Part shown: piece after piece, positions 23,719-51,184 of the stretch
Layout of the letters: each line of letters starts with the position of its first letter
Position numbering within the stretch: position 1 is the first letter of the stretch
Translations under genes and position numbers: made by a program
Assembly (NCBI GenBank): GCA_020630915.1
Contig: JAHDIF010000003.1
Coordinates: 62,001-126,000 of the forward strand
Source: Dokdonia sp.
GTDB lineage: Bacteria; Bacteroidota; Bacteroidia; Flavobacteriales; Flavobacteriaceae
Length of the DNA: 64,000 bases
Direction: 5' to 3'
The notes under the pieces: model-generated
What the model was told of the DNA's origin: nothing
Database searches by the model: none
Seen by the model: only the letters and a program-made list of their open reading frames with translations

Positions 23719-23857
23719 GGTCATTTTCAAAAAAATATAATTTGATTTCTAACATAATAATAATTGAAAAATATTTGTATTTATGGGTCTTGATTAGATG
23801 TTGTAATAATCCCAAAGAAAGAATTATCTTTACCTAGAGTACCCGTAAAATTTTGGA

Positions 23858-26100: not shown

Positions 26101-26379
26101 AATTGGTATTTTGTATTGGTAAAGATTCAGTTTTTTAAAGTCACCTATGTTTTAGCTATAATTTATATTATCTAATCTAATTTTTTACCAATAACTATTA
26201 CTGTATATTTTTTTTAGTAATACGTGTTCTTGTTTTGGTGTGCCAATATAACTAAATATGAGGCGTCTAATTATGGATTGATAACTTCCATTGATGTATT
26301 CAAAAGTTCTGTTTATCAGTTAGCTATTTTTTTATTGTTAAATTATTTAACATCTTTACGATAATCTATTTCTGTGTTA

Positions 26380-26784
26380 ATGAAACGAAAATACATCTAT
26401 GTAGTCGCAATCATTGGATTATATTTTTTCCAGAGTTGCGGACCTGCGCATAATTCTGTCCCAAAAGTAAATAGTAATGCTAGTAATTATTTTATTGTTG
26501 AAGATAAAATTAGTTCCACCCCCAGATATATAAACGGAACGGATTTATTCTTTATTTACAAAGAAAATTACAACGACCAAGACACTCAATTAGATTATAA
26601 AATTTATGATCAAAAGAGGGTTGTGGTGCAATCTTCTCTTTCAGTGCCTATAACAATAAAATATGGTCTTAATAAATTGCAACTCCCTTTAACTGGTTTA
26701 TTATCTAATACAGGGATTTATGTGTTGGAGATAACGGACGAAAAAAATCAAAAAAAATTCATCACTTTCTTAAAGAGCGTATAA
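26380..26784 (+). CDS. Small lipoprotein of unknown function
   Basis: About 134 residues, starting at ATG 26380 (a GTG at 26374 is in frame but leaves an odd N-terminus). It has a lipoprotein signal, KRKYIYVVAIIGLYFFQSC, with lipidated Cys20. The rest looks like a small beta-sandwich: ISSTPRYINGTDLFFIYKEN, then strands around VVVQSSLSVPITIKYG and GIYVLEITDEKNQKKFITFL. No family is recognised. It is the first gene of the SpvB/Rhs operon and its stop directly abuts the ATG of the 2089-residue protein, so it may help to anchor that protein at the membrane (inference). Confidence 0.65.
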   Translation: MKRKYIYVVAIIGLYFFQSCGPAHNSVPKVNSNASNYFIVEDKISSTPRYINGTDLFFIYKENYNDQDTQLDYKIYDQKRVVVQSSLSVPITIKYGLNKLQLPLTGLLSNTGIYVLEITDEKNQKKFITFLKSV

Positions 26785-29700: not shown

Positions 29701-32700
29701 GTAAAGAAAATGATAAAAGGTCTAAAATACCTTCGGTTTAGGAGTTATGTTGACCTAAAATATAGTCCTGATCTAGTGACTAATGTTAAGGCTGCCGACT
29801 ATGTTGAAGGTTATGCTGAAATTCAAAGTGCTGGAATGCTCGACGCAAATACGGGCTACGTGCAGATCAAACCAATCAAACCTAAAACAGGTTCTCCTTT
29901 AATGAATCCTATTAGACTAGCTGCCTTACAATACATCCGTAAATCAAGACCTGATTTAAGTAAAAGTTATGATCTCAATAATCCCGTGCCTGTTGTAATG
30001 AACTATATACCGGATATGCTTAATGAAGCCAGTGTGATTTTAGCTGGTTATTATAAAACGTCTATTGCCAAGGGATGGGCCAAAGAATTGAATACGGATA
30101 AGCCCTCGTTTATACGCTTAGTAATGCCTAGACAAAAATTTGGCGGTGGGTCTCGTGTACGTCAAATTACAATGTCAAGTAACGATCGCAATAATAGAAT
30201 ATATGGGCAAACCTATTCATATGATTTAGAAGATGGCACATCTTCTGGAGTAGCCGAGTTTGAACCGATACTAGGAATAGAAGAAAATGTATTTACACAG
30301 CCAGTTTGGTATAAGACGGAAAAGAATGGACACGAAATTATTTTTTCTAATGAAAAGTCATTTTTAGAAGAGCCTGTTGGAGCTGGATTATATCCAAGTG
30401 CAAATGTGGGTTATAGTAGAGTAGAGATAAGAAACCTTGAAGAAACGGACATTACGCTAGCGCAATCAGGTATCAATGTAAGTGAATTTTATACAGCCAA
30501 AGATTTTCCTACCAAGGTGACTCGAAGCGGAGCATTATTTGCGCCGTATTGGGCTCCAGTATACATTCCCTTTATTGGAAAGCAGAAAACTAAAAACTAT
30601 GGATTCTCTATGGGGCATTCATTCACACTTAATAATTCTATTTATGGGAGACCTAAATCTGTAGCGACTTATCCGTATACAACAAATAATGAGTTGGGTG
30701 AACCTATTCAAAAGAGTGTTTATACATACAGAACAAATCCCGATGATCATAAACAACTGGATAATTTTGTACCCACACTCAAGAAAGAAGGAGAAATAGA
30801 AGATGTCCATCTAGGTAAGGAAGTAGATTTCTATATAGATGAGATAGAATCTAATACACAGCATATAGACTTGGGCTCTCAGATTAACATGAATATTCAA
30901 TATCCTGCATTCTTGCCTTCTTGGTTCCCGAAAATTAATACAAGTAGAGAAGGTACTAGATATTTAAGTACTACAAAGATCACTTATAACCAACCCATAT
31001 TAGAGAGTATCTCACAATACAAGGATGGGGCAGAAGTAAAAACTAGCAACCTTTATTACGATTATGAAACAGGAGAGCCTATTATTACTTCTGTAACTAA
31101 TGAATGGAACCAACCGGTATATACCTATAATTTCCCTGCGCACTGGAGCTATGATGCAATGAAAGGAGCTTATAAAAACTATAGATCTAGGATTTATTTG
31201 GCCTCTAATCCTCCTAATTCTGGGAGATATTCTTTAAAAGATAGAAGTAATAGTCTTCTAGGTGTCAATGTTGAAGAGGTATTCCAACCTGGAGATGTAT
31301 TAATACGTGATTCTTCACAACAACTATTTTATGTAGATGATTTAAACACTAATATAAACACGATTGGTCTCAAGCAAAGAAATGGACAAAGTGCTAATTT
31401 TGTAGCTGATAGTTTGACAATTATAAAATCTGGCTATAAAAACTTACAATCCACCAAGAAAGGTAAGATTGTAAGCTTGGAAGATTTGTCTATAATAGAT
31501 TTATATACAACTCAACAAGCTACCCAGAGTCAAGCTATTTCTGCTATTCTTGCAGCTTATAATACTAGTCGTCCTGTTTTTTCTTCAAAAATATTGGGAA
31601 GTGTTACTCTTGGAACATATAATAGCAGTGACGTTTTAGGCCCAATGAATATTCCAGAATGCAATTCAGAAATCGAATATTCTATTGGCTATAGTTACCA
31701 AAAAGCAACAGGAAATCTAACGTTCAACTTTGGAAGTGCTGTTAGTTCAGAGTGTTCAATTACTGCTCAAAATATTACACTACCAGATGATACAGATTTT
31801 TCTAATTTTAGATTTGTTGATAGTAGTTATGAAGCTTTGTCCCAAACTGTTAAAATGATTTATGTTCAGTCAGGACACCTTCTTAATGGACAAGTTTTTA
31901 GTTTCACTCTTCAAAATCTAGTTGACTGTTTTATCTGCAATCAAAGAGAACCTATTACAGTTCTCCACGCGGATGCTACAGAATTCTCAGACCAATGGAA
32001 TTTTAATTATAATGAACTTTCTTCTCAAACGGTTAATACTTTAGGAACAACATTATCAAATATTGCAGCAGATCCAAGTAAAGGAAATCACTATGCTTAT
32101 GGTATCAGAGGGATTTGGAGACCTAAACGAACCTCTGCCTATCTAATTGATCGTAAGCAAACAGGCGTAAATGGTAGTGGTCTGCAGATTGATAAGGATG
32201 GAGAGTATGATACTTTTTACCCTTTCGATTGGACTCAGCCCATAAACTATAATGAAAGGTATAACTGGCGTTGGGTTAATGAAGTGACTAAATACAATGT
32301 TAATGGATCTTCTAAAGAAGGGCGTAATCGTTTAGACATACACGCCGCTTCTCTATTTGGATATGAGAACCACTTGGTAACTGCATCAGCCTCAAATTCT
32401 AAAACTACAGATATTGCTTTTGATAGTTTTGAAGATTATCAACTTGATCAATATAATTACATTATTGGTTCAGCTCACGGTAATTTTAATTTTACAGGTA
32501 ATATTGCGCTAGGCAAACAGGGACATACGGGCTCCCATAGTTTGTATGCTGACAATAGTTATAATCACAGAGTAGATTATAATAATCTCGACACGAACTA
32601 TTTCATTCCAGAAAGAGGTAAGAAATATGTCATCAGTGCCTGGACTAAAAACAGTGATATCCCAGATAATGCGATTATACATATAAAAATAAACGGCGCG

Positions 32701-33054
32701 ACTATTATAAATTCTTTTGATGTTGCTTTGTCTAACCAATTTATTGATGGGTGGAAACAGATTTCCGGAGTGTTTGAAATTCCATTATCCGCCACAACAG
32801 CTGAAATTATTTTCTCAGATAAAAATGACGATCGAGGGTCCTCTTATGACGATATCCGAATCCAGCCATTCAATTCAGGTATGGAAACTTATGTGTACGA
32901 CCCTACTAATTATAGATTACTTGCGACACTAAGTAATCAGAATTATGCCACCTTCTATAATTACGATGAGGAAGGTAACCTTACGCAGACTAAAGTAGAA
33001 ACGGAGAGAGGCATTAAAACGATTTCTTCGAACCAAAATAATATCAAAAAGTAA
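26785..33054 (+). CDS. Giant exported SpvB/Rhs-like protein (2089 residues)
   Basis: A signal peptide ends near HSQ at about residue 21. Residues 28-115 carry the N-terminal block common to Bacteroidota SpvB/Rhs relatives (SDDMVNLYTGDFNYNIPL, MDQAASWVGLGWNLNTGAI). A long beta-rich middle has no recognised catalytic motif. A jelly-roll carbohydrate-binding-like domain lies at about 1879-2028 (ending SYDDIRIQPF), followed by YD-type repeats (YVYDPTNYRLLATL, FYNYDEEGNLTQTKVETERG) at the end. There is no Rhs core of the HDPRVGRF type, and no type IX C-terminal signal. It is likely a shell or surface protein working with the Rhs proteins encoded downstream. Function is not established. Confidence 0.8.
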   Translation: MNKVSLIFLFSLLGLSYIHSQTTGPTQPEASSFTPIGSDDMVNLYTGDFNYNIPLMVIPGPDGGYPINLAYNSNVGMDQAASWVGLGWNLNTGAIQRNLRGLPDDFKGDEIKKTTYIKPSRTISFTYTPKAFNKEFLGASLKEGFPISTSYGLYYNNYSGFGINTSLSGIKTSLTKNKSGDALNLGLNLKFGNQEGISLSPKLSYDYFTGTKNDIIVNGLKHSTALGFNLNSKQGFSDLNLSHKAKKQEGLGTLGAALVSSVSGSDIKPNVSSTNSSKWGSISFASAAPLQSLSHKRTTLTTNFSFAYDPKKKSIVKTDEVQEIFGSYMSSWIDSNEKSTKSFGAMYMTAKENGSLTDFYRENGNGITKKNMITPVSILTYDVFSIQGHGVGGSFRAYQNSIGRFSDPEIKSTTTNTEVGIEAGFPLDFPSPPPPIKIGLDLGAGYGKSYSGPWKEAYRYLEPLNDLRFKESSVEKPLYEPFYFKMIGESAPMSQKYWEDMQKETPIAFNINRKYDWESFEAKAKAFREYNRTSKTFLGSHKDDRTVRSQHIEYFTKDDLSGSYLVDHIVNMDTNTLNAIDYNLGKEHHINGVSVLKTNGVRYNYFLPAYNHTTEKVSFSVEGVPLNQNPKVITDADVTGSLSNYEKVFNGAGEDHYYSKEVIPAYAHTYFITSILSQDYIDVDDNGPTENDLGTYVKFNYEKVPNYEWRFPFAGAYYSKGYQSNPGDDKASYQRGTKDLYYVNSIETKTHIAVFKANDSKLQGVNGKKQKELKLVALFSKNDPNYTEGFYYSGTSWPNPIQQVHLDQNYHLRKNTPNSTSGYTPALDSLHFTYYNSSNGENSKYAFKYGTDPNYEDHQQDRWGAYHKPPTVEVHENPYTYQQESYANRDAEASAWLLDEIEIPSKGKIDIDYEKDDYAYVQDKKATSYIELIGTGDTRDAIDGWELKNEDSFLFFKTPFTLDPDPIKGDNQVKKMIKGLKYLRFRSYVDLKYSPDLVTNVKAADYVEGYAEIQSAGMLDANTGYVQIKPIKPKTGSPLMNPIRLAALQYIRKSRPDLSKSYDLNNPVPVVMNYIPDMLNEASVILAGYYKTSIAKGWAKELNTDKPSFIRLVMPRQKFGGGSRVRQITMSSNDRNNRIYGQTYSYDLEDGTSSGVAEFEPILGIEENVFTQPVWYKTEKNGHEIIFSNEKSFLEEPVGAGLYPSANVGYSRVEIRNLEETDITLAQSGINVSEFYTAKDFPTKVTRSGALFAPYWAPVYIPFIGKQKTKNYGFSMGHSFTLNNSIYGRPKSVATYPYTTNNELGEPIQKSVYTYRTNPDDHKQLDNFVPTLKKEGEIEDVHLGKEVDFYIDEIESNTQHIDLGSQINMNIQYPAFLPSWFPKINTSREGTRYLSTTKITYNQPILESISQYKDGAEVKTSNLYYDYETGEPIITSVTNEWNQPVYTYNFPAHWSYDAMKGAYKNYRSRIYLASNPPNSGRYSLKDRSNSLLGVNVEEVFQPGDVLIRDSSQQLFYVDDLNTNINTIGLKQRNGQSANFVADSLTIIKSGYKNLQSTKKGKIVSLEDLSIIDLYTTQQATQSQAISAILAAYNTSRPVFSSKILGSVTLGTYNSSDVLGPMNIPECNSEIEYSIGYSYQKATGNLTFNFGSAVSSECSITAQNITLPDDTDFSNFRFVDSSYEALSQTVKMIYVQSGHLLNGQVFSFTLQNLVDCFICNQREPITVLHADATEFSDQWNFNYNELSSQTVNTLGTTLSNIAADPSKGNHYAYGIRGIWRPKRTSAYLIDRKQTGVNGSGLQIDKDGEYDTFYPFDWTQPINYNERYNWRWVNEVTKYNVNGSSKEGRNRLDIHAASLFGYENHLVTASASNSKTTDIAFDSFEDYQLDQYNYIIGSAHGNFNFTGNIALGKQGHTGSHSLYADNSYNHRVDYNNLDTNYFIPERGKKYVISAWTKNSDIPDNAIIHIKINGATIINSFDVALSNQFIDGWKQISGVFEIPLSATTAEIIFSDKNDDRGSSYDDIRIQPFNSGMETYVYDPTNYRLLATLSNQNYATFYNYDEEGNLTQTKVETERGIKTISSNQNNIKK

Positions 33055-33056
33055 TC

Positions 33057-33743
33057 ATGAGGGCTTTTTACATAACCATATTGTTTTTGAGCACATTCGT
33101 TGTGAGTAGGTCACAGGTGCCGCAAGAAGATACTATATCCTTTCTTTTAAAAGTACAGCAAGTATATGCAGATGCCACTGCTTTTGATATGACAATAGTC
33201 TTAGAACAAGTCGAATCAGACAATCAAAAAATAACCCAAAACTACAGGTCAATTAGAAGCGGTAACCAATTTTATATTGAAACTCCGGTTCTAACCTCTG
33301 TGATTGATCAAGAACACACACTTTTAATTGATAAAGTACAGAAGGAAATACAGCTCAGTAATTCTGTCGAGCAAAATAGCGACCTTTCAGCATTATCTAA
33401 GGTAATTCCGAACAGTCAAGAATTAAAGAATCAGATTACTAAGGTAGAAGAAACCCCAGAAGAGTTGCGGATTAGTTTTAAGGATCCAAATGGATATTAT
33501 GATGAAGTGTATTATGCTTTCGCGAAAGCAAACTATCAACTAAGATCTGTACGATATCTTAATAATAGTATTGAAAATGGAGAGATTTCAGAAATTAAAC
33601 TGAAATATTCAGAAAATCATATTTGCAACGAAGTAGATTCGTCTTTATTCAGTATTGCTCCATATGTAGAGAATATGGGATCGAATTGGGTACTCACAGA
33701 GGCCTACAAGGAGTATTCATTAATAAACAGTTTACTACCATGA
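33057..33743 (+). CDS. Periplasmic LolA-like protein of unknown function
   Basis: A 228-residue protein with a signal peptide ending near VSRSQ. The pattern after that, FLLKVQQVYADATAFDMTIV, an antiparallel sheet (NYRSIRSGNQFYIETP, HTLLIDKVQKEIQL) and a closing KLKYSENHICNEVDSSLFSI, recalls the LolA/LppX half-barrel that holds lipids or lipoproteins. The similarity is by pattern only and weak. It lies between the two giant exported proteins and overlaps the second by 4 bases (ATGA), so a chaperone-like role for them is an inference. It contains one GCTTTCGCGAAAGC palindrome at 33516-33529. Confidence 0.55.
   Translation: MRAFYITILFLSTFVVSRSQVPQEDTISFLLKVQQVYADATAFDMTIVLEQVESDNQKITQNYRSIRSGNQFYIETPVLTSVIDQEHTLLIDKVQKEIQLSNSVEQNSDLSALSKVIPNSQELKNQITKVEETPEELRISFKDPNGYYDEVYYAFAKANYQLRSVRYLNNSIENGEISEIKLKYSENHICNEVDSSLFSIAPYVENMGSNWVLTEAYKEYSLINSLLP
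33516..33529. repeat. Palindrome GCTTTCGCGAAAGC, copy 3
   Basis: Exact copy within the LolA-like gene, read as AFAKA. This shows the palindrome is also present inside the accessory island. Confidence 0.9.
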
Positions 33744-36700
33744 GAAATATTATACTATTCTTTGTGCTTCTGTTTTTACAAGGATTATCCAGTAGTGCCC
33801 AAGAGGTTTTTATAGATGGCGCTTTTGGTACTACTATCCAAGCTGGAACAAACCTTACAGTAGAAGATCAGTATCAACAATGTCGTGTAGCAACAAATTG
33901 CCCATACGATTTTGAATTAGAGAGTACGCGATTATATACTAAGTTATATTTTGATGAGTCTCTAAGAAATTATTATGCTACAGATTGGAAAGTAACTATT
34001 GACTATAGCATTGCGTTCTATCAGAATTATAGCAGTACAAGCTCAACGAACACATCGCATACATTAGAAATTGATTATCATCCCACTGAAAATTATAAGG
34101 ATATAGATGCTTTTATACACAGTTTACCTGCGGGTTTTTATACCAAAGCAGATGTCGCTATAAACACAGTAACCATTACAGATAGGAATGGATCGCCAAC
34201 CACGGTTATGACCACCTTACCAGACTATATTCATTTTGATGTGCATCTCGAGGTAAATAGAGTATATACATTAGATGTGAACAGAAAACCTAGAGTCAAC
34301 ACATTTAATAGTACTACAGGAATAAATACTGTAAACAATACGTTTACTATTTCTTGGGACTTTCTTTCAGGAGCACATGAATATGATGTAGAGTGGCTTT
34401 TTGTAAATATGGGGAATAGCCCGCAAACAGATGAATTCTATCTCGATTTTAAGAATGCCACAAGAGTTACCACGCAGCAACACTTTTATGATATATCACT
34501 AGCATATCCTAGAGGTTTTATTATTTGGCGAGTACGAGGTGTAGGTCTAGAGAAATCTGATCCCGCAAGTCTTGTTTTTGATAAACGAGTAGAAGGAGTG
34601 TGGTCATTTAACAGTAAGGGGTATTACAAACAAAATGGGGTAGATCTCGTACCTACTTCGGGTAATACATCAGGTAATAGTAGATATTCCAATCATAATT
34701 TCTTTTGGCCTGGATTAGAACAAGATAAAAACTGGCAATATAATGTGGTGTATGCAGAAGATGGCAAACGCAAAGAAGTAATCAATTTTTATGATGATAT
34801 ATTAAAACCAGAGCAAACAGTAACGATTTTAAATACAGATCAAACAGCAGTTGTAGCCCAACCCGTCTACGATTTTGTAGGCCGAAATAGCCTTCAAGTA
34901 TTGCCTGCACCTCAAGAAAGTCAGGGTATGCGTCATTATGATGCCTTGCACAAAGATAATTCTGGTAACAATTATTATTATCCCCATTTTGACACAGACA
35001 ATCTGGTGAATATGCCGAAACCATTGGGTTCTCAAAGCAACAAAGGTGCTGGCTATTATTATTCTGATCAAAACACAAACCCTATTGGTATTAATGGACA
35101 GTACACCCCAGACGCAAAGGGATATCCTTTTTCTAGAACAATTTATAAAAATGATGGCTCAGGTAGGGTTAAAGCTGTTAGCGGTGTAGGTAAAGAATAC
35201 TTTAGCAATGGAGGGCAACTTACCCATGAAACAAAATTTTTATACGGCTCTCCATTTCAAGAAGAGCTTACCATGCTTTTTGGAAACAATGTAGGCTTTG
35301 CGAAATATTATGAAAAAACAGTCGCCATTGATGCAAATGGTCAAGCCAGTGCTTCTGTAAAAGATTTATCTGGAAGGGTTATTATGACTTCATTAGTAGG
35401 AGAAGCTCCAGAGAATCTAAAAAATATAGATACAAAACCTACCAACCCTATTACACTCAATGTAAATCTTAATCGTCTCAATACCCTTACAGATGATGCA
35501 CTCACGGTAAATAAAGTATTGCTGGCTACAGGAAGCACTATGTATAATTTCCAGTATAGCCTTACTCCAGAACTTTTTAATAATTGTGGGGTAGATACTT
35601 CTTGTGTATATGATCTAGAAATTTACCTTAAAGATGATTATGGACAAAAACAACCTATTGTTTTTAGTGGCGCAACAGTAAGCGAGATCAGCTTAACAAA
35701 AGTGACAGACGTTGCGAGCATCTCCTTTAGTGCTCAGGTAGCAGTAGGTTCCTATCAACTCATTAAAAAGCTTACACTTAATGAAGCTCATCTAAACGAT
35801 GCCGTTCAAGATTGGATAGATAGCCAGATGTGTTATGAACCTCGTAAAATAGACCCTATCGAGAGTTGCAATCCCAATTGTGAAGAGTTATGTAAAGAAT
35901 CGTATTGGAGTGTCCCAGACGCTACCACAGGCATCCATTATTACCTGGCCTTAGACGATGGCAGACATGTGGCAGAATTAAATAATGGGTCTTTAGTAAC
36001 CATTATAGATCAGACAGCTTATAACGCAGTTCTTGCTGAAATAGCTACCTGCCAAGCAGCGTGTGAAGCCTATGACCCAACAGAGCCTCCTTTGAGTGAT
36101 TGCGAGTTTCAATATGAATTGCTCAAACAAGATATGTCGCCAGGAGGACAGTATTTTGATAATATTGCAGAACGTGATGATGCCAGAGGTAATGCAAATT
36201 CTAGTTATGATAAAAATGGTTGGTTGAAAAATAATGCAGATCAGACTGTGAAAACCTGTTTACAAGAAAAGATGGGCATTAGACAGTATGCCACCAATAC
36301 TGATGATTTCTGGAATGAGGTACGCGATAATTGGCAAGATGAATATGTAGATATAACCATAAAAATGCATCCAGAATGGTGTGCTTTTGAAAAACTGTGT
36401 GGGGCTTCGTGGAGTTGTAGTTGGAATGATCTTGGTGTTAATAGTACGTTTAATATGGATCCTACAGCGGCTTTTGTCACAGATCAGGCTACTATAGATG
36501 GTTATTTATCAAAAACAGATTGGGGATCAATATCGGCTCAAGCAAAGTTAGAAGCGCCAGCAAGTCTTCATTCAGAATTAGAGCCTTCAAAACTTAAAGA
36601 GAGAGGTCAAAAATTTTATGAAGAGCTTTTAAAATATAGACATGTAAAGCAACAGTGCTCTGGATTACATTTACAGTCTCCAGCAGAAGACGCACTCACA

Positions 36701-39529
36701 GCGGAGGGCTTCGCCATACGATACCCGTACAATGAGATTTTTGAAGATTTTGATCCAGACGATCCTGAGGCTTATCAAGACAAACTGGAAGAAGAAAACT
36801 GCAAACGAGCAGCAGACCAAGTGGCAGATCAATTTGTACAACGCCTTAAAAATAATTGTGACGTATTAACAAGCAGGCAAGAACAGGAACTTTGGCAATT
36901 TATTCACGACACCTACCTCAAAGATTGTCAAGATCCAAGCACGACGGTAAATCTTAATGACGCAATACGAGACTATATATCCTGCACCTCAATGCTACCA
37001 GAAGGATGTTTTGTAGATGCCTTACCAGAACAAACAGAGGAGTCCTGCGAGTGTAAAAATATTAACGACTTTGTCGTAGGAGTAATACAAAGCGTTACAC
37101 CTACAAAGACGTATCTCGATATTGTAAGCGACGTACGTTTTGGTAGTAATCAAGAGGTGCAGGATGCACTAGAGGCTGTACTGTATCCAGATGATCTTAG
37201 CCTTAAAGGAGATTTTGCAGCCTGGTACAAGGAGTGTAATACCGCTCCCCATTATTCTTGGACAGGAGGAGGGCCTAAGCCACCGGCAGTTTTAGCAGCG
37301 TACTTCTCATGTGAGGATGAAGAAGAACCAGAAGACCCAATAGACACAGATAAAGAATGTGCAGAAGTTTTTAACGCAATGGCTCAGGCCGTTGCAAATC
37401 TCGAATTTGAACAACTTATGCGTCAAAAGGCAGCTGAGTATAAGCAAGCTTATGTCTCCCATTGTTTGGCAAAAGCCTATAATGGCAATGAGCAATTTAC
37501 GCTAGATTATCTTTATAACGAGTATCACTACACTTTATACTATTATGATCAAGCAGGAGATCTTGTAGCAACTGTTCCTCCAGAGGGCGTGTACCAGCAA
37601 GATGCATTAGACGCAACACGAGTAGTTCATGATAGTCGTATCACAGATCAAACTACACTCGATGCAGCAAATCGATATCTAGAAAACCCTGATACAAACC
37701 CTTTTGTGAATACCAAACATCTAATGATTACGAACTACCGGTATAATTCTTTACAGAACGTGGTACGACAGAACACACCAGATGGCAACGATTCTCATTT
37801 TTATTACGATGCCTTGGGAAGGCTTGTAGTTTCTCAAAATGCAGAACAAGTAGCAAGAGATGCTTATAGTTACTTGAGTTATGACCTTTTAGGGCGCACT
37901 ATAGAGGCTGGAGAGCTTATAAGCACGACGGCAATGAATAAGGCTATCGCAGAAGATATTACAGATTACAACAACCCTACGGGTGCAAATGCCTTATTAA
38001 ACTGGTTGGATGGTAAAAAACGCAATGAGCGAACTCTTACTTTTTACGATCAAGTAAACCCATCTATCACAGGACCATCACATCCAGCTTTTGAGCAACA
38101 AAATTTCTTGCGTAATCGCATAGGAGCTGTAGTATATGACCAAGAGGGAGACTCCTATGATGCTGCGCCTGGGGCGACTAATAGAGAACGTCCAGTTGGT
38201 TATGATGCTTTGACGCATTATGACTATGATGTACTAGGCAATGTGGAGACCCTTTGGCAAGAAAATAGAGCTATACCTATAACAGCACATCAAGTAAAAC
38301 GTTTTGATTATACCTATGATCTTGTAAGTGGTAATGTAAACACCGTGTCTTATCAAAAAGAAAAACAAGACCAGATGTTATACCGCTATCGCTATGATGC
38401 AGATAATAGGCTTACGGAAGCACACAGTAGTACTAATGGTTTATTGTGGGATACAGACGCTAGGTATTTCTATTATGCACACGGACCTCTTGCACGTGAA
38501 GAAATAGGGGATAAGCACGTCTTTGCAAATGATATGATCTATGATATACGGGGTTGGATTACCGCTCAAAACAGCTCTATGACAGTGGCAGATCGTGATG
38601 CGGGTAAAGACGGAGTGGCTGGAGAACTCAATGAAAATTTTGGAAGAGATCCTTTTGCCTATTCACTACATTATTTCAAAGACCATTATCAACCTATTAG
38701 TACTGTTGTGAGTGGAGTTCTTGCCAGCGACTTTAGTAGTATTAATAGTACAGCGTTCATTACTACGGCAGATACCAAGCCCCTGTACAATGGTAATATT
38801 TCTATGATGGTGACAAGTATGAAGGATATTACACAGCAGCCTATTAATGTAATGGCAAATGCCTATACCTATGACCAATTGAATCGCATCAAGAGTTACA
38901 AACCATTTTGGGATACAACTAGTGGGAACAACCCGCTTGCGCGAAATGACTTCGCAAACGTATCAAACAATGGCGATTATAATAGTAGCTATGTCTTTGA
39001 CGGCAACGGAAATATAGAACAACTCTATCGCAATGGAGTAGGCGCTTCTCAAGCGATGGATAAGTTATCCTACAACTATAACTACAATGCTGTAGGAGCA
39101 AAAATAAATAACCAACTTTTTCACGTAGATGATCCCGTAGGCAAGGTTGGGAATGACCTAGACGATCAAAATGCGGGCAATTATGTGTACGACAATATAG
39201 GAAGACTCGTTACCGATGTTTCTGAAAACATTAGTATGAACTGGAACGTAAGCAATAAAGTACGATCAATTACCAGACCTGCAGGAATTGATGCGGCAGA
39301 CCTAGAGTTTAGGTATGGCCCAATGGGTAACCGTATTTATAAAACTGTAGTGGAGAAAGATGCACTAGGCAACCCGCAGCCTCCTAAAAGCACTTGGTAT
39401 GTACTAGATGCTAGTGGTAACCCTATTGCCTTTTATGAATTAGAAAACGGTGTATTGACCCTTAAAGATTTTGTGCTCTATGGCAATAAACGCTTAGGAA
39501 CGTTTACGCAAGATAAAACTATGCAATAG
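33740..39529 (+). CDS. Exported Rhs/YD-repeat shell protein lacking its tip (1929 residues)
   Basis: The start is the ATG at 33740, just after the LolA-like gene's last codons; an upstream in-frame extension lacks a signal peptide and is rejected. A signal peptide ends near SSSAQ. Residues up to about 320 are beta-rich with a fibronectin-like part (NTFTISWDFLSGAHEYDVEW). A cysteine-rich middle (CNPNCEELC, CEDEEEPEDP) follows. From about residue 1220 come YD repeats (YRYNSLQNVVRQNTPDG, FYYDALGRLVVSQ, YDYDVLGNVETL). The chain stops right after FVLYGNKRLGTFTQDKTMQ, the point where ordinary Rhs proteins go on to the HLGNV...SDRK core. That core is in the next two genes instead. Confidence 0.85.
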   Translation: MRNIILFFVLLFLQGLSSSAQEVFIDGAFGTTIQAGTNLTVEDQYQQCRVATNCPYDFELESTRLYTKLYFDESLRNYYATDWKVTIDYSIAFYQNYSSTSSTNTSHTLEIDYHPTENYKDIDAFIHSLPAGFYTKADVAINTVTITDRNGSPTTVMTTLPDYIHFDVHLEVNRVYTLDVNRKPRVNTFNSTTGINTVNNTFTISWDFLSGAHEYDVEWLFVNMGNSPQTDEFYLDFKNATRVTTQQHFYDISLAYPRGFIIWRVRGVGLEKSDPASLVFDKRVEGVWSFNSKGYYKQNGVDLVPTSGNTSGNSRYSNHNFFWPGLEQDKNWQYNVVYAEDGKRKEVINFYDDILKPEQTVTILNTDQTAVVAQPVYDFVGRNSLQVLPAPQESQGMRHYDALHKDNSGNNYYYPHFDTDNLVNMPKPLGSQSNKGAGYYYSDQNTNPIGINGQYTPDAKGYPFSRTIYKNDGSGRVKAVSGVGKEYFSNGGQLTHETKFLYGSPFQEELTMLFGNNVGFAKYYEKTVAIDANGQASASVKDLSGRVIMTSLVGEAPENLKNIDTKPTNPITLNVNLNRLNTLTDDALTVNKVLLATGSTMYNFQYSLTPELFNNCGVDTSCVYDLEIYLKDDYGQKQPIVFSGATVSEISLTKVTDVASISFSAQVAVGSYQLIKKLTLNEAHLNDAVQDWIDSQMCYEPRKIDPIESCNPNCEELCKESYWSVPDATTGIHYYLALDDGRHVAELNNGSLVTIIDQTAYNAVLAEIATCQAACEAYDPTEPPLSDCEFQYELLKQDMSPGGQYFDNIAERDDARGNANSSYDKNGWLKNNADQTVKTCLQEKMGIRQYATNTDDFWNEVRDNWQDEYVDITIKMHPEWCAFEKLCGASWSCSWNDLGVNSTFNMDPTAAFVTDQATIDGYLSKTDWGSISAQAKLEAPASLHSELEPSKLKERGQKFYEELLKYRHVKQQCSGLHLQSPAEDALTAEGFAIRYPYNEIFEDFDPDDPEAYQDKLEEENCKRAADQVADQFVQRLKNNCDVLTSRQEQELWQFIHDTYLKDCQDPSTTVNLNDAIRDYISCTSMLPEGCFVDALPEQTEESCECKNINDFVVGVIQSVTPTKTYLDIVSDVRFGSNQEVQDALEAVLYPDDLSLKGDFAAWYKECNTAPHYSWTGGGPKPPAVLAAYFSCEDEEEPEDPIDTDKECAEVFNAMAQAVANLEFEQLMRQKAAEYKQAYVSHCLAKAYNGNEQFTLDYLYNEYHYTLYYYDQAGDLVATVPPEGVYQQDALDATRVVHDSRITDQTTLDAANRYLENPDTNPFVNTKHLMITNYRYNSLQNVVRQNTPDGNDSHFYYDALGRLVVSQNAEQVARDAYSYLSYDLLGRTIEAGELISTTAMNKAIAEDITDYNNPTGANALLNWLDGKKRNERTLTFYDQVNPSITGPSHPAFEQQNFLRNRIGAVVYDQEGDSYDAAPGATNRERPVGYDALTHYDYDVLGNVETLWQENRAIPITAHQVKRFDYTYDLVSGNVNTVSYQKEKQDQMLYRYRYDADNRLTEAHSSTNGLLWDTDARYFYYAHGPLAREEIGDKHVFANDMIYDIRGWITAQNSSMTVADRDAGKDGVAGELNENFGRDPFAYSLHYFKDHYQPISTVVSGVLASDFSSINSTAFITTADTKPLYNGNISMMVTSMKDITQQPINVMANAYTYDQLNRIKSYKPFWDTTSGNNPLARNDFANVSNNGDYNSSYVFDGNGNIEQLYRNGVGASQAMDKLSYNYNYNAVGAKINNQLFHVDDPVGKVGNDLDDQNAGNYVYDNIGRLVTDVSENISMNWNVSNKVRSITRPAGIDAADLEFRYGPMGNRIYKTVVEKDALGNPQPPKSTWYVLDASGNPIAFYELENGVLTLKDFVLYGNKRLGTFTQDKTMQ

Positions 39530-40743
39530 TGAATAACTCTCATTACATATCGCTTATACTACTATTGCTAGTGCTCATAGCGAAACATGGGTATGCACAA
39601 TCTAGCACGCGCGTGGTTGGTTATAAAAACTTTGAAGTAAGTAATCATTTAAACAACGTGAGTGAAGTCACAACAGATCGTAAACTGGCTGTTGCAACTA
39701 CTTCTATGATTGCCTACAATGATACAGACATACTAAGCAATACAGATTATTATCCTTATGGGATGCAACAAGTAGATCGCTCTCAGTCTGATGATTATAA
39801 ATATGGTTTTCAAGGACAAGAAATGGACGATGCCATAAAAGGAAAAGGTAATAGTGTGAATTATAAATACCGTATGCACGATCCTAGAGTTGGGCGGTTT
39901 TTTGCTGTGGATCCTTTATACAACAAGTACCCTTACAATAGTCAATATGCTTTTAGTGAGAATAATGTCATAAATGCTATTGAGTTAGAAGGTTTGGAAA
40001 AATATGTCAGAATAGAATATAAAATTGGGTCAAGGATAGTTGCAGTGGAATACACCAAAGTCGAAAATGATAATATTAGAAATTACTTTAAAACAATTAA
40101 TATCACTAATACTACAAACAATTTCAGACAATTAAAAGGTATTCTTGACAATAGCCCTAATCCCGATTATCAAAGTGATTTGGGTGGTGGAGGAAATGGC
40201 TGGATTATTTCTAAAAGAAAAAATGTGGACTCGACTGGCTTTTATTCAAAAAGAGGAATAGACCTTAATAAAAAGGCTGGAAGATTAGTAAATGCTTTTA
40301 TTAAAGACTCAGTAAATAGTTCTGTAAAATCTTATAGTTCTGAGACTAGTAGTAATGGGAGTCATTTAATAGCATCAAGCTTGCTCGCTCAAATTAGATT
40401 TCAAAGAGATATTTTCGCACTTCCATTAGCTGACTTGCAAAACAATGAATATTTGAATGAAATATTAAACTATGCCCAAACTCTTGAGAACTTAAATAAT
40501 CCAAATTTAACTTATACTATAGATATAACGGGGATGGCCAGTCAAATAAATAAGACAACTCAAGGAGGAAATGCACAACTTTCAATTAATAGAGCAAATT
40601 TTATTCGTCAGTATTTTATAAACAACGGGATACCTGCGAATCGATTAAACGCAACAGGGGTTAGTACTTCCAGGAATACTGGTAATAATGCAAACGATAG
40701 ACGAGTAGAAGTAAAACTGAATTTAAACATAAGAAGTCAGTAA
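39529..40743 (+). CDS. Exported Rhs core protein with OmpA-like C-terminus (tip 1)
   Basis: A 404-residue protein starting at GTG 39529, overlapping the shell gene's TAG by one base. It has its own signal peptide (to about GYAQ, residue 24). Residues 25-157 are an Rhs core: [74 protein letters not shown]. The rest is variable; its end resembles an OmpA C-terminal peptidoglycan-binding domain ([18 protein letters not shown], then RLNATGVS and DRRVEVKL), with the usual Arg. No toxin catalytic motif is recognised and no obvious immunity gene follows. The core is duplicated in the next gene. Confidence 0.8.
39601..39999 (+). repeat. Duplicated Rhs-core cassette, copy 1
   Basis: The coding sequence for the Rhs core of tip 1 is clearly related at DNA and protein level to 40812-41204 in tip 2. 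Near-identical runs encode [18 protein letters not shown] in both. Similarity ends sharply after EGLE, where the variable C-termini begin. This is the expected layout for tip exchange by recombination in the core. Confidence 0.75.
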
Positions 40744-40748
40744 ATATT

Positions 40749-41882
40749 ATGAAAGTGAAAATAATCATTGTTCTATATCTTTTCTTGTTAGTAGATTATG
40801 TTGCAAGTCAAACACGAACTATTGGCAACAAATCATTTGAAATCTCAAACCACTTAAACAATATTACAGAGGTAACCAGTGATAGAAAAGTATCTAGTAA
40901 TACAGGACCAACAATTGCGTATCAAGAAACAGATATCATAAGTCATAATGATTATTACCCCTATGGCACGCAACAAGAAGATCGATCACAATCTGATAAC
41001 TATACACACGGTTTCCAAGGTCAAGAAAAAGATAACGAGGTAAAAGGAGTAGGGAACAGCATCAATTATAAATATAGGATGCACGACCCTAGAGTAGGGC
41101 GGTTTTTTGCGGTAGATCCTTTATATCAAAAATACCCTAATAATAGTCAATATGCGTTTAGTGAGAATAGGCTTGTTGATGGCATTGAGTTCGAGGGTTT
41201 AGAGTTTACTAAAAGATTACCATCTGGAAAATATATAGGAACTTGTTCTTCCGATTTAAAAGAGCAGAAAGTAACAATTTCTCCTTCTAATTTCTTTAAA
41301 AAAACTACCAGTAAGGAAATGATGATGTCATCTAGGAATAAGTTAATAGCAGATATAGCATTCCGAGGAAAAGGAATGTCATTTATGGACAATTTTATAA
41401 AATCAAGAAGTTTTACAACTTATGAAATGTCTACTACAACTGAATTAATTGAAGGAGAAAGATATCTCATTACTCAAATAATTGAGAAAAGCTTAGTAGT
41501 GAGTTATGGAGAGGCTGGAACGATTAATGAATCTGACATAGTTTCAATTGACAACGTAATTACTATTAGTTTAAAGACGAAACAGAAAATTATCAAAGAA
41601 AATACTAATGGAAGCTATGAATTGTCAACTGAAGATGTAGATTTCAATGTTGAATCTGATGCCCCCAAAGCTCAAAATATAAATTTTAAAGATCAAATTG
41701 ACGCATTGAATATTGTGAAAGCACGCGTGGGTAATGAAAATGCTGAAAAGTTAATTAAAGACAAGGCATATAATTCCAATTGGGGTAATAGGCAAAATAA
41801 AAAGATCATTAAAAACATTAATAAAATGGTGGATGATGCTACAAAAAATACAGGAGAAAAGATAAACCCTATTAAATTTTGA
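40749..41882 (+). CDS. Exported Rhs core protein with unknown C-terminus (tip 2)
   Basis: A 377-residue protein with a signal peptide ending near YVASQ (about residue 21). Residues 22-152 repeat the Rhs core of the previous protein ([58 protein letters not shown]). The C-terminal 225 residues are unrelated to tip 1: a mixed region followed by a lysine- and asparagine-rich end ([20 protein letters not shown]). No enzyme motif is visible. It could be a toxin or binding domain. The next gene codes for a barrel-like protein, not a typical immunity protein. Confidence 0.78.
40812..41204 (+). repeat. Duplicated Rhs-core cassette, copy 2
   Basis: Second copy of the Rhs core, in tip 2, in direct orientation about 1.2 kb after copy 1. 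Signal peptides before the cores differ in sequence and C-termini after the cores are unrelated, so only the core has been kept alike. Confidence 0.75.
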
Positions 41883-41884
41883 CA

Positions 41885-43111
41885 ATGAAATATGTGATAT
41901 TCTTTTTCTTTATAGTAGAAAGTTTTATTTGTAATTCACAGGAAAATTTGCAACTCCTCTCAGAGTTTCATTTGGCAAACCCTATAGAGAACGCTTCTAA
42001 TGCAAGCCTTAATCTAGACAACGGTTTTGGAGCAGGATTACATATAGATAAACTCAATATTTGGGGGCCACTAGGGTTAGGAGGCTATGCTGCGTACCAA
42101 AAAAATGATATCAATTTTGAGACTAATTTTCCAGATCTGGTGAGTGATCCTATGTTTGGCGCACAACTATTGGAAGAAGGAAGTAGCTTCCAGTGGAGTA
42201 GTGTCCAGCTTGCCATAGGGCCAGTCCTATCACTTGATCTTGATAAAGAAGATAAAGTAAGCTTTCAAGTCTTTTCTAAAATAGGCCTCGCCAATGTATC
42301 CTATGCAAACTATAGTTATACAGCAGCCTATGATGATCCTGCGCTTAATGATATTACACTTTTTGAGACTATTACGGCTCCAGAAGATGAAATAGGCATC
42401 AATCTTACATGGGTAAGTGGTGCGCATCTTAATTATATGTTTTCTAAAAGTGTAGGGATTAGTCTTGGTGGTAATTTTAGTATTATTGAAGGCGTTACTC
42501 ACAGATACAGAAGCCTTGACGCTACGTTTGAAGAAGGAGGTGAGCCTAATATACTTTATGAAACTGCTATTTCTAGCACTACTTCTAATATATTACAGCG
42601 CTGCCGTATTAAAAACATTAACGGTACCGTCGGTATTATTGTGCAACTGGGAGGCATCCCAGTAAACGAACCAGAAGAGGAAGAAGAAATCTTAGGAGAG
42701 GAACAACCAGAAAATGAAGAAGATGCTTATGTATGTGAGCCACTCTTATATAGAGCACCCGGCTATAATGAACCCATAATACTTACTAAAAATCCTGCCG
42801 TAGTATTTGAATGGTTTGACACCAATACTCGCGAACTTAAAAAAGACAAGCAATATCAATTACAGCTCTTTACAAAAACCGGGGACTCCTATACGCCAGT
42901 CCATACAGAGATATTAAAGGGTACAACAAAATCTAGGGTGAATATGAGAAATATACCCCCTCCACAGGACTATGCAATGTACTGGCAAATTGTTCCTGCT
43001 AGCGGTAATGCCACCATATGTGCACAACCACGAAAAATGATGAAGATGCTTGTATTTAGAAATCAAGCGGAGGCAGATGAGAAACTACCAGAATGTTTAA
43101 TAGGAGGATAG
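41885..43111 (+). CDS. Outer-membrane barrel-like protein with C-terminal beta domain
   Basis: About 408 residues, starting at ATG 41885 (a TTG at 41879 overlaps the previous stop but is less likely). A signal peptide ends near CNSQ. The first 260 residues look like an eight- to ten-stranded barrel (GFGAGLHIDKLNIWGPLGLG, ISLGGNFSIIEG, NINGTVGIIVQLG). An acidic linker (PEEEEEILGEEQ) follows, then a cysteine-containing beta-sandwich (YVCEPLLYRAPGY to ATICAQPRKMMKMLVFRN). Family not recognised. Being part of the Rhs operon, it may be an outer-membrane docking protein for the exported Rhs proteins; that is inference. Confidence 0.6.
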   Translation: MKYVIFFFFIVESFICNSQENLQLLSEFHLANPIENASNASLNLDNGFGAGLHIDKLNIWGPLGLGGYAAYQKNDINFETNFPDLVSDPMFGAQLLEEGSSFQWSSVQLAIGPVLSLDLDKEDKVSFQVFSKIGLANVSYANYSYTAAYDDPALNDITLFETITAPEDEIGINLTWVSGAHLNYMFSKSVGISLGGNFSIIEGVTHRYRSLDATFEEGGEPNILYETAISSTTSNILQRCRIKNINGTVGIIVQLGGIPVNEPEEEEEILGEEQPENEEDAYVCEPLLYRAPGYNEPIILTKNPAVVFEWFDTNTRELKKDKQYQLQLFTKTGDSYTPVHTEILKGTTKSRVNMRNIPPPQDYAMYWQIVPASGNATICAQPRKMMKMLVFRNQAEADEKLPECLIGG

Positions 43112-43178: not shown

Positions 43179-44261
43179 ATGAAAAAATACATATACATAC
43201 TAAGCATATGTCTCCTAGCACTTTTGAGTTGTGAAGACTGCTGTGAAGATCTAGAAGTCATTACAGAAGATCCTGTAGGTGGTGATGATATGCCTCCTCC
43301 AGATATCTGTGAGGGAGATTTCTATTACGGTAGCCTTACAGAGGAGCCAACCACAGGTCAACGTTTTCTTACTTTTGAAACCTTTAGCCAACCTTTGACA
43401 GACCCTTTAGGAAGAACTGATATTGAGGTGCAAAATATTAATTTATTTAATGAATTTTATTCACCATCTTTTGGAACCTATGATCAAGACAATGATCGTT
43501 ATGCCTTCTTTTATTTATTAGACGATAGCGATGCCCCTAACACGCTCTATCTTGCAGATACGAATACAACAAATACGACAGCAATACAAACATCTCAAGA
43601 TCAAGCAGCTCCTGTTTTCCTAAATGGGAATTTATACACCATTAATTTACAAACAGAAATACCTAATGTAGATTTTGAAATCTTACAACTCGATCAAACT
43701 ACCGGAAACGCCACGCAAATTGCTTCTAGTTTTGCTACGGTAGATGGTGAATTTTTTAATGCTTCTATATCATCTGCGACAAATGGAATTGATACTATTT
43801 ACTTCTTAGGGGTCAAAACCTTAGTAAGTTATAATGTCCTATCAAATACGGTACAAGTACAAGACATTAATATACCGTATGATGCAGATATACAAACGGC
43901 CCTTTCTGGTATAGAATATCGCTTTACAACAAATGAACTCATTGCGATCCATCATAAAATTAATAGCCCCACAGCTATTGAAGAGTTGGTGTCTATTGAT
44001 ACCACGTCTGGAGAGGTAACACCGATTATAAATATTGAGTCAAACCTTAGCGAGGCCAATAATGGGAGCATTGAGTTTTTAACAAATAGCACAGCGTATT
44101 CTTCTTGTGAGGACACTTACTATGTTACAGAAATTGTGGATCCTGAAACGAGTGATTCTCCTAATAGCTTTTTGATTGCCATAGACCTAGTAAATAATAC
44201 ACTTTCAGAAATACAAACCCCAGACTTTTTATATGGACTAACAATTAATGATGATAACTAA
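43179..44261 (+). CDS. Lipoprotein of unknown function, possibly beta-propeller-like
   Basis: A 360-residue lipoprotein with lipobox LLSC and lipidated Cys18, followed by acidic residues (CEDCCEDLEVITED), as in surface-exposed Bacteroidota lipoproteins. The body has repeated beta segments of the form seen in propellers (RYAFFYLLDDSDAPNTLYLA, APVFLNGNLYTINLQ, DTIYFLGVKTLVSYNV, TNELIAIHHK). No family is recognised. It follows the barrel gene after a 67-base gap and precedes two more small lipoproteins. Confidence 0.65.
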   Translation: MKKYIYILSICLLALLSCEDCCEDLEVITEDPVGGDDMPPPDICEGDFYYGSLTEEPTTGQRFLTFETFSQPLTDPLGRTDIEVQNINLFNEFYSPSFGTYDQDNDRYAFFYLLDDSDAPNTLYLADTNTTNTTAIQTSQDQAAPVFLNGNLYTINLQTEIPNVDFEILQLDQTTGNATQIASSFATVDGEFFNASISSATNGIDTIYFLGVKTLVSYNVLSNTVQVQDINIPYDADIQTALSGIEYRFTTNELIAIHHKINSPTAIEELVSIDTTSGEVTPIINIESNLSEANNGSIEFLTNSTAYSSCEDTYYVTEIVDPETSDSPNSFLIAIDLVNNTLSEIQTPDFLYGLTINDDN

Positions 44262-44272
44262 ACACAATAGTA

Positions 44273-44719
44273 ATGAATAATAAAACACAAGCATTTTTCG
44301 CAGTATTAACCGTATTAATTATTTTAATTTCCTGTAGTAATGATGACGATAACAATCCTCAAACTTGCAATAATCAAGGACTAGCTTACGAATTGAATGC
44401 AAATGGAACCATCATACTCGCTCCAGAGGCTAATCTCACTACAGATCTCTTTCCTAATCAGTCTACGGGAGTTGTTGAGATATTTGGAAACGATTCTAAT
44501 GGAGACTTTATAGTATTTACAACAGATGTGATTACTTTAAACGCGATGGGAACGGGAGATTTGATTATAGGTGGTATGCCCAATGACACAGTAAATGTTA
44601 CCTGTATTGCAACAGATAATGTTGTGGGAGGCCTTATGCGTTTTGAGCTCTCGGGCAACTATAATAACGCGCCAATAGATGGCGAATATTGTGTAACTAT
44701 CGATAGTGTAAACCCCTAA
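44273..44719 (+). CDS. Small lipoprotein, unknown function
   Basis: A 148-residue lipoprotein with lipobox ILISC (Cys21) and the post-cysteine sequence CSNDDDNN, an acidic stretch common in outer-membrane lipoproteins of this group. The rest is a small, probably all-beta domain with two further cysteine positions (PQTCNNQG, VTCIATDN) and a terminal GEYCVTID, so a disulfide is possible. No family is recognised. It starts 11 bases after its upstream neighbour. Confidence 0.65.
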   Translation: MNNKTQAFFAVLTVLIILISCSNDDDNNPQTCNNQGLAYELNANGTIILAPEANLTTDLFPNQSTGVVEIFGNDSNGDFIVFTTDVITLNAMGTGDLIIGGMPNDTVNVTCIATDNVVGGLMRFELSGNYNNAPIDGEYCVTIDSVNP

Positions 44720-44729
44720 TATACATCTT

Positions 44730-45113
44730 ATGAGAAATATGAGTTATTTTATCGCTTGTCTATTTTTATTGTTATTAACTTCCTGCAATAATGACGACGA
44801 CATAGCGCAAGATGATAATCTTGAAGGACAAGGCCAGTCCCTTTTAGCATTTTATGTCTTCGGAGAATTAGACTGTGGAGAAATCTCAATAGCTGTAACC
44901 GGTCTAGAAACTAAAACAATGGACGGACAAGAACGACCTATGGGGTTTGTAGATTGTCAGGACACAAGTCCCTCTGTAGTACAATGGAACGATATTCCTA
45001 GCGGCACGTATAACTATACGGCAACGTGCCAAGGATTTACTTGGACAGGAACAAGAAGTTTAGGTAATGGTACTTGTAGTTACCTTGCTTTAACAGCAGG
45101 AAGTGCAGATTAG
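44730..45113 (+). CDS. Small lipoprotein, unknown function
   Basis: A 127-residue lipoprotein with lipobox LLTSC (Cys19) followed by CNNDDD. An in-frame ATG at 44739 is a possible alternative start. The body has ELDCGEISIAVTG, FVDCQDTSP and YTATCQGFTW, that is four or five cysteines likely paired in the periplasm or outside, and a beta-sandwich pattern. It ends the + strand operon and is followed by a 130-base gap to a convergent operon. Function unknown. Confidence 0.65.
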   Translation: MRNMSYFIACLFLLLLTSCNNDDDIAQDDNLEGQGQSLLAFYVFGELDCGEISIAVTGLETKTMDGQERPMGFVDCQDTSPSVVQWNDIPSGTYNYTATCQGFTWTGTRSLGNGTCSYLALTAGSAD

Positions 45114-49877: not shown

Positions 49878-49989
49878 TTGTTGTTATATTATTTATAATG
49901 CTGCGCTCTTAACATTGTATGCTTTGACAAAGTAAACACCTACTATTGTATTTTTTAGTTATTGAGCATTGGTTATTTAAAGAAATTAT

Positions 49990-50994: not shown

Positions 50995-51184
50995 TATTAT
51001 TCTAGTTGTGATATTAATAGTCACTAAACAGTCAGAACGGACTGAGTAAAATGTATTGTATTGTCGACGATAATGTTTCTAAACTGACTTATACCGTGTC
51101 CTCTTAAATAAATTCTTACTTCATCATTATAACTATTTGATATATAATGCAATAGTTTATTGTAGTTTAGTATATTTTACGATG

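What the first reader, a model, noticed from the sequence alone, without database searches (positions are those of the whole stretch)
33740..41882. Rhs protein split into a tip-less shell and two separately exported core/tip proteins
In ordinary Bacteroidota Rhs proteins the chain runs from the LYGNKRLG-type segment straight into HLGNVL...SDRK, the HDPRVGRF core and a variable tip. Here the 1929-residue shell stops right after LYGNKRLGTF, and the missing part appears twice as independent genes, each with its own signal peptide, its own copy of the core, and a different C-terminus. This suggests a modular system where one shell accepts alternative tips after export, instead of tips made in one chain. 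The clean break, operon order and absence of frameshift debris argue against simple decay.
Basis: partly seen in the sequence, partly recalled or inferred. Interest (0 to 1): 0.75.

Follow-up and report, generated by a model that had tools for sequence, protein, structure and literature searches.

The report
Rhs shell with separately exported tips
A giant cage-like bacterial protein that is normally one chain is here encoded as several pieces that each look separately exported, with two different end pieces beside one shell, and the same arrangement in a second genus argues that it is a lasting design and not a broken gene.

Summary
A 1929-aa YD/Rhs shell (33740-39529) stops nine residues after LYGNKRLG. 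Two following genes (404 and 377 aa) each carry a signal-peptide-like start, an Rhs-associated core and a different tail. The decisive new fact: a second genus of the same family (G329, L135/L203) has the same gene run: lipoprotein, TcB-like partner, LolA3-like protein, shell ending LYGNKRLG..TQ.KTM, two signal-peptide tips, barrel-like protein, lipoprotein. The shells are 59% identical and sisters in a tree (100/100). The four tips have four tails without significant pairwise similarity; one ends in an OmpA domain. Among 397 family genomes the barrel gene was found only in the two split carriers. The other short core-bearing genes that I read look like displaced cassettes without a signal peptide (one passes my crude rule). 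In G329 the TcB-like partner is itself split, its second half with its own signal peptide. So this is a conserved, derived, multi-gene Rhs system, not decay. That the tips dock into the shell after export is the best inference but untested; whether they are toxins is unknown. New variant of a known kind.

The parts
26374..26784 (+). small lipoprotein-like gene (136 aa) opening the gene run; ortholog in G329 (128 aa, 49.6% identical)
   Evidence: 0 of 500 shuffles reach the alignment score
26785..33054 (+). TcB-like YD-repeat partner, 2089 aa, signal-peptide-like start (by eye); one chain here, two genes in G329 (1645 aa + 498 aa with its own signal peptide)
   Evidence: (DUF6531 and CBM_4_9, both under cut-off)
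33057..33743 (+). LolA3-like periplasmic protein, 228 aa
   Evidence: NF053579 E 1.9e-17, 63.6 bits, under the curated cut-off of 83; ortholog in G329 (E 2.8e-17, 63 bits)
33740..39529 (+). Rhs/YD-repeat shell without core or tip, 1929 aa, signal-peptide-like start (by eye)
39529..40743 (+). tip 1: signal-peptide-like start + Rhs-associated core + OmpA-domain tail, 404 aa
40749..41882 (+). tip 2: signal-peptide-like start + Rhs-associated core + tail of unknown kind, 377 aa
   Evidence: structure prediction failed
41879..43111 (+). outer-membrane beta-barrel-like protein with a C-terminal domain, 410 aa (a likelier start is the ATG at 41885); found only in the two split carriers among 397 family genomes at E <= 1e-6
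   Evidence: G329 ortholog, PF13505 E 0.0033, under cut-off; 40.0% identical; the window protein itself has no barrel match
43179..44261 (+). lipoprotein-like protein, 360 aa; ortholog in G329 (342 aa, 32.2% identical)
44273..45113 (+). two small lipoprotein-like genes (148 and 127 aa), not seen in the G329 gene run; immunity role possible but untested
   Evidence: no Pfam match

Best explanation
This is a derived, stably inherited multi-subunit Rhs system. The chain of an ordinary Bacteroidota Rhs protein has been cut at its hypervariable linker between the last shell repeat (LYGxxRLG) and the core (NHLGNV...HDPRVGRF), and the core+tail half has been duplicated and given its own signal peptide. 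Shell, TcB-like partner and tips are each exported through Sec to the periplasm (inferred from signal-peptide-like starts). There a tip core most likely packs into the open end of the shell, as the covalent C-terminal region does in RhsA, TcC and teneurin, and closes it without a peptide bond (inferred). One shell can thereby carry either of two tails (inferred). The LolA3-like protein, the barrel and the lipoproteins would serve folding, outer-membrane passage or anchoring (inferred); the OmpA tail would bind peptidoglycan, in the producer as an anchor or in a target as a Tox-OmpA-type effector (inferred). Shown: the split, its conservation in two genera, sisterhood of the two split shells, tail diversity and gene co-occurrence. 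Not shown: complex formation, location, activity.
For: Second gene run in another genus with the same order, the same shell end and two signal-peptide tips; codon-position differences of the shells 0.336, 0.234, 0.575 over 1900 codons, as under purifying selection; sister shells 100/100; tip cores 58-74% identical among themselves while the six tail pairs score at or near shuffled sequence; barrel in only the 2 split carriers of 397 family genomes, against 23 of 397 with a shell match; G329 has no Rhs core other than its two tips; the B partner is also split with a new signal peptide in G329 and, separately, on a Bernardetia plasmid; the cut lies in a linker of 14-479 aa (median 153) in 42 one-chain frames.
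Against: Only two genomes carry it. Signal peptides were judged by eye and by a crude rule of mine, not SignalP. No complex could be modelled (shell over the size limit) and both tip models failed (pLDDT 31.5 and 33.6). In solved Rhs structures the closing C-terminal region is described as 14 Rhs repeats (PMC8765631, passage), more than the roughly 135 residues that the tips share, so the cut may run through the closing region and not at its edge. There and in TcC the tail lies inside the cocoon, which is harder to picture for a tip exported on its own. No immunity gene or toxic activity is shown. Cotranscription was not tested.
Confidence: 0.65

Rival explanations
1. The tips are stand-alone periplasmic, peptidoglycan-associated proteins that have borrowed the Rhs core as a domain and never join the shell, which works open or is closed by something else.
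For: One tip has an OmpA domain and one a sub-threshold LysM match (E 0.031; E 0.009 at 18.4 bits, cut-off 20.9); both domains are usual in peptidoglycan-bound proteins of the producer.
Against: The shell lacks what the tips hold, in both genomes. The tip-2 core is 52-64% identical to the cores of the ten best one-chain matches (38-65% over all one-chain matches listed there), so it is still kept as a core. Different tails on one kept core fit an interchangeable end piece.
Confidence: 0.2
2. The tips are ordinary displaced Rhs cassettes, kept as recombination donors, that happened to gain signal peptides.
For: Displaced core+tail cassettes are common in these bacteria.
Against: There is no one-chain Rhs in G329 for them to recombine into; the shell end is the same in two genera; a signal-peptide-like start is seen in 5 rows for the 4 split tips (one tip counted twice) and in 1 of the other 81 rows.
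Confidence: 0.08
3. Recent disruption or sequencing error broke one Rhs gene.
For: Broken Rhs genes do occur: a Hymenobacter plasmid has shell, middle and core pieces without signal peptides and B-like pieces as well.
Against: Both genomes, 59% identical in the shell, have intact signal-peptide tips, two each, and the same shell end.
Confidence: 0.03

Closest known systems
Tc (ABC) toxin TcB-TcC cocoon with several alternative TcC subunits (Yersinia entomophaga YenB + YenC1/C2/C3; PMC11067744, Discussion read)
   Same: A partner half-shell plus alternative C-terminal pieces from separate genes that share one shell; Rhs core; variable tails. Core matches to TcdB2-TccC3 in the PDB are weak (E 0.29-0.43; SGS4 is better, E 0.00019).
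   Different: In Tc each TcC carries part of the shell, core and tail in one chain (from the passages and general knowledge). Here the exchangeable piece is core + tail only, with its own signal peptide. No TcA-like match among the genes scanned.
Displaced ('orphan') Rhs tip cassettes (PMC3482391, passages read)
   Same: Short genes of core + tail with varied tails, often in arrays.
   Different: The cassettes that I read start with leftover shell or linker sequence or at the core, without an export signal; the tips here have signal peptides ending, by eye, about 4-7 residues before the GNKS(Y/F)E-SNHL segment and follow a shell that lacks the core.
One-chain Bacteroidota Rhs gene run: TcB-like + LolA3 + Rhs, e.g. 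L093/G053 and L095/G065
   Same: Same first three gene types in the same order; the middle gene matches LolA3 (185.2 bits in L093, over the cut-off of 83; 75.8 in L095, under it); shells 48% and 40% identical over the last 400 aa.
   Different: The shell frame runs on past LYGxxRLG into the NHLGNV segment and beyond.
Tox-OmpA, a C-terminal OmpA domain in PVC-delivered toxins (PMC3482391, passage read)
   Same: OmpA domain at the extreme C-terminus of an effector-like protein.
   Different: There on PVC-delivered proteins; here on a Rhs core with a signal peptide.

Membership tests
Rhs / polymorphic-toxin proteins | Rhs-associated core (TIGR03696) over the curated cut-off | tested here: met
   Window tips 41.6 and 36.7 bits; G329 tips 37.6 and 42.0; cut-off 32.5
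Rhs / polymorphic-toxin proteins | YD/Rhs repeat shell | tested here: met
   YD_repeat_2x 18.3 bits over cut-off 15.8; RHS_repeat 16.9 under cut-off 22; relatives are annotated Rhs proteins
Rhs / polymorphic-toxin proteins | shell, core and variable tail in one chain | tested here: not met
   shell ends nine residues after LYGNKRLG; core + tail in separate genes
Rhs / polymorphic-toxin proteins | toxic C-terminal domain with cognate immunity gene | tested here: inconclusive
   OmpA tail, sub-threshold LysM, two unknown tails; small lipoproteins after the window genes have no Pfam match
Tc (ABC) toxins | TcB partner with SpvB/TcdB domains | tested here: not met
   no SpvB match at E <= 1 on the 2089-aa partner, only DUF6531 and CBM_4_9 under cut-off and one weaker match
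Tc (ABC) toxins | TcA translocator | not tested
   No TcA-like match among the genes scanned; the genome was not searched for one
Tc (ABC) toxins | core autoprotease with Arg and two catalytic Asp (PMC8765631, PMC9935623 passages) | tested here: inconclusive
   At the second Asp of DPxGL all four split tips have Glu; so do 80 of the other 98 scored cores, against 15 with Asp and 3 with another residue; 29 of 131 cores could not be scored
Displaced Rhs tip cassettes | core + tail without an N-terminal export signal | tested here: not met
   All four tips have a signal-peptide-like start; 1 of the other 81 rows does (crude rule)

The most novel reading that the evidence does not exclude
A reloadable Rhs machine fixed in the cell envelope: the cocoon is put together in the periplasm from three or more separately exported chains (in G329 even the B half is two genes), and the core acts as a detachable plug that presents one of several tails. 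One plug is tied to peptidoglycan by an OmpA domain, and a dedicated outer-membrane barrel holds or releases the assembly. It would be an Rhs class in which tail choice is made by subunit exchange and not by DNA recombination.
Probability: 0.3. Interest if true: 0.78.

Novelty: new variant of a known kind. Interest (0 to 1): 0.58.

Why it matters
In the Rhs and Tc proteins described in the passages I read, the core is joined to the shell by a peptide bond and the tail lies inside the cocoon. A natural system in which core + tail comes in trans would show that the cocoon can be closed by a separate subunit, would make core docking directly testable with purified parts, and would give Bacteroidota a way to vary the tail without recombination. 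Among the titles and abstract starts listed by six searches of the held paper library (lists capped at 10-20 papers, empty) I saw no such arrangement; that library lacks most subscription journals.

Tried and rejected
AlphaFold2 on tip 2 and on the G329 tip 1 with four-row alignments gave pLDDT 31.5 and 33.6; no fold search was run on them. I suspected an OmpA-like tail in the G329 tip 1; Pfam and a whole-genome PF00691 search at E <= 10 do not show it and its alignment to the window OmpA tail is at shuffle level, so it is dropped. The single genome-contig scan used tip 1 and found 40 loci; its peptide patterns differ from the G329 tips, so its silence about other G329-like tips means little. 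Short frames beginning at the NHL segment in other genomes looked like split tips; those fetched and read show leftover shell or linker sequence and no signal peptide. One displaced cassette (L199) passes my signal-peptide rule from a GTG codon but is followed by leftover shell sequence; it is counted. An early note of mine said that the one-chain relative L092 has a LolA3-like gene between B and Rhs; one search shows that it has none, and the report uses L093 and L095 instead. Plasmid hits were fetched in part, 5 of 14 records: L239 and L240 run on past the NHL segment in one CDS, L241 is fragmented, L243 holds shell and core in one CDS, and L242 was fetched but not read. Phages: no barrel match.
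Full report
WHAT IS THERE. On the + strand a close run of genes reads: lipoprotein-like 136 aa (26374-26784), YD-repeat partner 2089 aa (26785-33054), LolA3-like 228 aa (33057-33743), shell 1929 aa (33740-39529), tip 1 404 aa (39529-40743), tip 2 377 aa (40749-41882), barrel-like 410 aa (41879-43111), lipoprotein-like 360 aa (43179-44261) and two small lipoprotein-like genes. Gaps up to 43111 are between -4 and +5 bases, then +67; cotranscription was not tested. The shell ends LKDFVLYGNKRLGTFTQDKTMQ*; its stop codon overlaps the tip-1 GTG by one base, in another frame. Both tips carry an Rhs-associated core over the curated cut-off. Tip 1 ends in an OmpA domain (PF00691 E 3.5e-10; the tail's PDB matches are two OmpA-type domains at E 0.0019 and 0.0031, while its core matches SGS1 and SGS4). 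The tip-2 tail has no Pfam match. The LolA3 match is below its curated cut-off, so 'LolA3-like' is a description.

SIGNAL PEPTIDES. Both tips begin with a hydrophobic segment and an A/S-x-A/S-like end (...HGYAQSS...DYVASQT), followed closely by the segment that in ordinary Rhs proteins reads xYELSNHLGNV...DRK. SignalP was not available. With a crude rule of mine over 86 short core-bearing frames in the loci fetched up to then, 6 rows pass: 5 rows are the four split tips (one counted twice) and 1 is a displaced cassette (L199). Frames that run off the 5' end of a locus were left out of that count.

THE SAME GENE RUN IN A SECOND GENUS. Searching the last 400 residues of the shell in 397 genomes of the family gave 23 genomes at E <= 1e-25. 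One hit, G329, stands apart (61% identical, E 1.8e-137; the next is E 1.3e-71). Its region holds, in the same order, a 128-aa lipoprotein, the B partner, a LolA3-like protein (239 aa), a 1981-aa shell ending LYGNKRLGTNTQNKTMN*, two signal-peptide tips (408 and 406 aa), a 430-aa barrel-like protein and a 342-aa lipoprotein. Identities are: shell 59.2% (1125/1900), barrel 40.0% (161/403), lipoprotein 32.2% (105/326), LolA3-like 29.6% (66/223), and upstream lipoprotein 49.6% (63/127). Codon positions of the shell differ by 0.336, 0.234 and 0.575, as expected under purifying selection. Flanking genes differ: by eye a sensor/regulator pair in G329; CHAT and CHASE2 genes in the window. G329 has only these two Rhs cores in its genome; the window's genome has four, the two tips and two one-chain Rhs proteins. 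Of 7 genomes of the G329 genus only G329 has a shell match at E <= 1e-20.

TAILS AND CORES. Tip cores are more alike within a genome (68.1% and 73.7%) than between genomes (58.5-63.7%), which fits duplication or gene conversion after the lineages parted. Five of six tail pairs score as shuffled sequence (p 0.34-0.76); the G329 pair is borderline (p 0.037, Z 2.2). So there are four tips with four tails: OmpA (window tip 1), unknown (window tip 2), unknown (G329 tip 1) and one with a sub-threshold LysM match (G329 tip 2; E 0.031; 18.4 bits against 20.9). At the second catalytic Asp of the core all four split tips have Glu, as do 80 of the other 98 scored cores, so cleavage cannot be judged.

HOW RARE. 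Genomes searched with the shell query: 99 relatives, 397 of the family, 7 of the G329 genus, 395 of the order and 88 of a second family; sets overlap and handles run G000-G786. Split shells: the window and G329 only. Other matches were checked by script where a locus was given: the 28 other loci, the 23 new loci and the one new locus either read on at least 56 residues past the LYG motif or hold the NHL motif in the same frame; the core itself lay inside the piece held in only part of them. One of them (L127, distant, 32% identical) stops 56 residues after LYG, past the NHL segment, and what follows was not searched for a tip. Four of the 34 matches had no locus and were not read, nor were the weak matches (L083-L090, E above 1e-11). 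Tip-query searches of 99 relatives and 397 family genomes gave further short core genes. Of (cut at E 1e-22) all 12 hits with a short frame and a match starting near the NHL segment were fetched and read: none has a convincing signal-peptide start by eye (the L199 one passes the crude rule), and three (two in G314, one in G204) run off a contig end and cannot be judged fully. Of most such hits were fetched and read, a few in G075 and G033 were not. The barrel gene occurs in 2 of 397 family genomes at E <= 1e-6, both split carriers.

ORIGIN. In a tree of 50 shell ends the two split shells are sisters (100/100) on a stem of 0.88, inside a 15-row group (support 91/87, short of the tool's 95/80 mark; root at midpoint) whose other 13 rows come from other families of the order, while 32 own-family rows group elsewhere (99/99). 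This suggests one origin of the split in the sample and, less surely, transfer of the locus into this family. The cut lies where one-chain relatives have a linker of 14-479 aa, median 153 (42 of 48 one-chain rows had both landmarks; the 14 is the distant L127, the next is 27), a place that plainly tolerates change. The other Rhs half shows the same habit: in G329 the B partner is two genes, 1645 aa and 498 aa, the second with its own signal-peptide-like start, matching window B residues 1-1567 and 1672-2089. A Bernardetia plasmid has B in two genes as well, the second with a signal-peptide-like start, with a one-chain Rhs after it.

THE ORDINARY PLAN. TcB-like gene, LolA3 gene, one-chain Rhs is found in relatives: the middle gene matches LolA3 in all four that I tested (L093 185.2 bits, over the cut-off of 83; L095 75.8, L240 65.1, L239 64.2, under it). 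L092 and L104 have no such gene between B and Rhs. So the TcB-like, LolA3-like and shell genes of the window follow a plan seen in one-chain relatives, and the signal-peptide tips and the barrel are what is added.

MECHANISM. In RhsA, Tc toxins and teneurins the conserved C-terminal region, 14 Rhs repeats, spirals into the cocoon and seals one end (PMC8765631, passages; Rhs core as plug of the shell in SGS1, PMC9935623, passages). The separate tips hold the Rhs core of this region and the shell lacks it. The simplest reading is that a tip core closes the shell without a covalent link after both are exported; the shared tip part (about 135 residues) is shorter than 14 repeats, so the shell may keep part of the closing region. 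YenB shares its shell among three YenC proteins from different genes (PMC11067744, Discussion), so choice of partner by subunit exchange has a precedent, though with another cut. An OmpA domain at the extreme C-terminus has been proposed as a toxin in PVC-delivered proteins (PMC3482391, passage); with a signal peptide it could equally anchor the assembly to the producer's own peptidoglycan. I cannot decide between these.

LIMITS. The paper searches showed no such split in the titles and abstract starts listed. Passages of PMC7073777 (TANFOR toxins of Bacteroidetes) and of PMC3482391 were also seen; no paper was read whole.

Noticed in passing
L010:1216-6767, L028:6589-11008, L099:1863-15795; same layout by eye in L011 and L021: Displaced Rhs tips lie downstream of a pair of tyrosine recombinases (PF00589 in both genes of the pair in the three loci tested), with a third larger gene beside the pair: possible mobile tip cassettes. 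In L099 the tips lie about 7 kb further on.
   Followed up: partly
L091:2306-14397 (G000:C11, just beyond the window end): The window's genome holds two tandem one-chain Rhs genes (1683 and 1694 aa frames) whose shells score identically against the window shell but whose C-termini differ.
   Followed up: partly
L203:2559-9002 (G329) and L244:1476-9257 (Bernardetia plasmid): The TcB-like partner is split in two, the second part with its own signal-peptide-like start, at a comparable place in two distant lineages.
   Followed up: yes
one-chain relatives, e.g. L150, and the cassette in L012: The linker between LYGxxRLG and NHLGNV is hypervariable (14-479 aa) and in some carries DxDGDGIGD-like repeats (named from memory as thrombospondin type 3).
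   Followed up: partly
L241:5078-13570 (Hymenobacter plasmid): Rhs and B-like genes in several fragments without signal peptides before shell and core pieces: what real debris looks like.
   Followed up: partly
window 45244-51024 and 22363-25864: Flanks: TPR-CHAT, CHASE2 and a D12 DNA methyltransferase after the gene run; Wzi-like capsule assembly and Polysacc_synt_2 genes before it.
   Followed up: no
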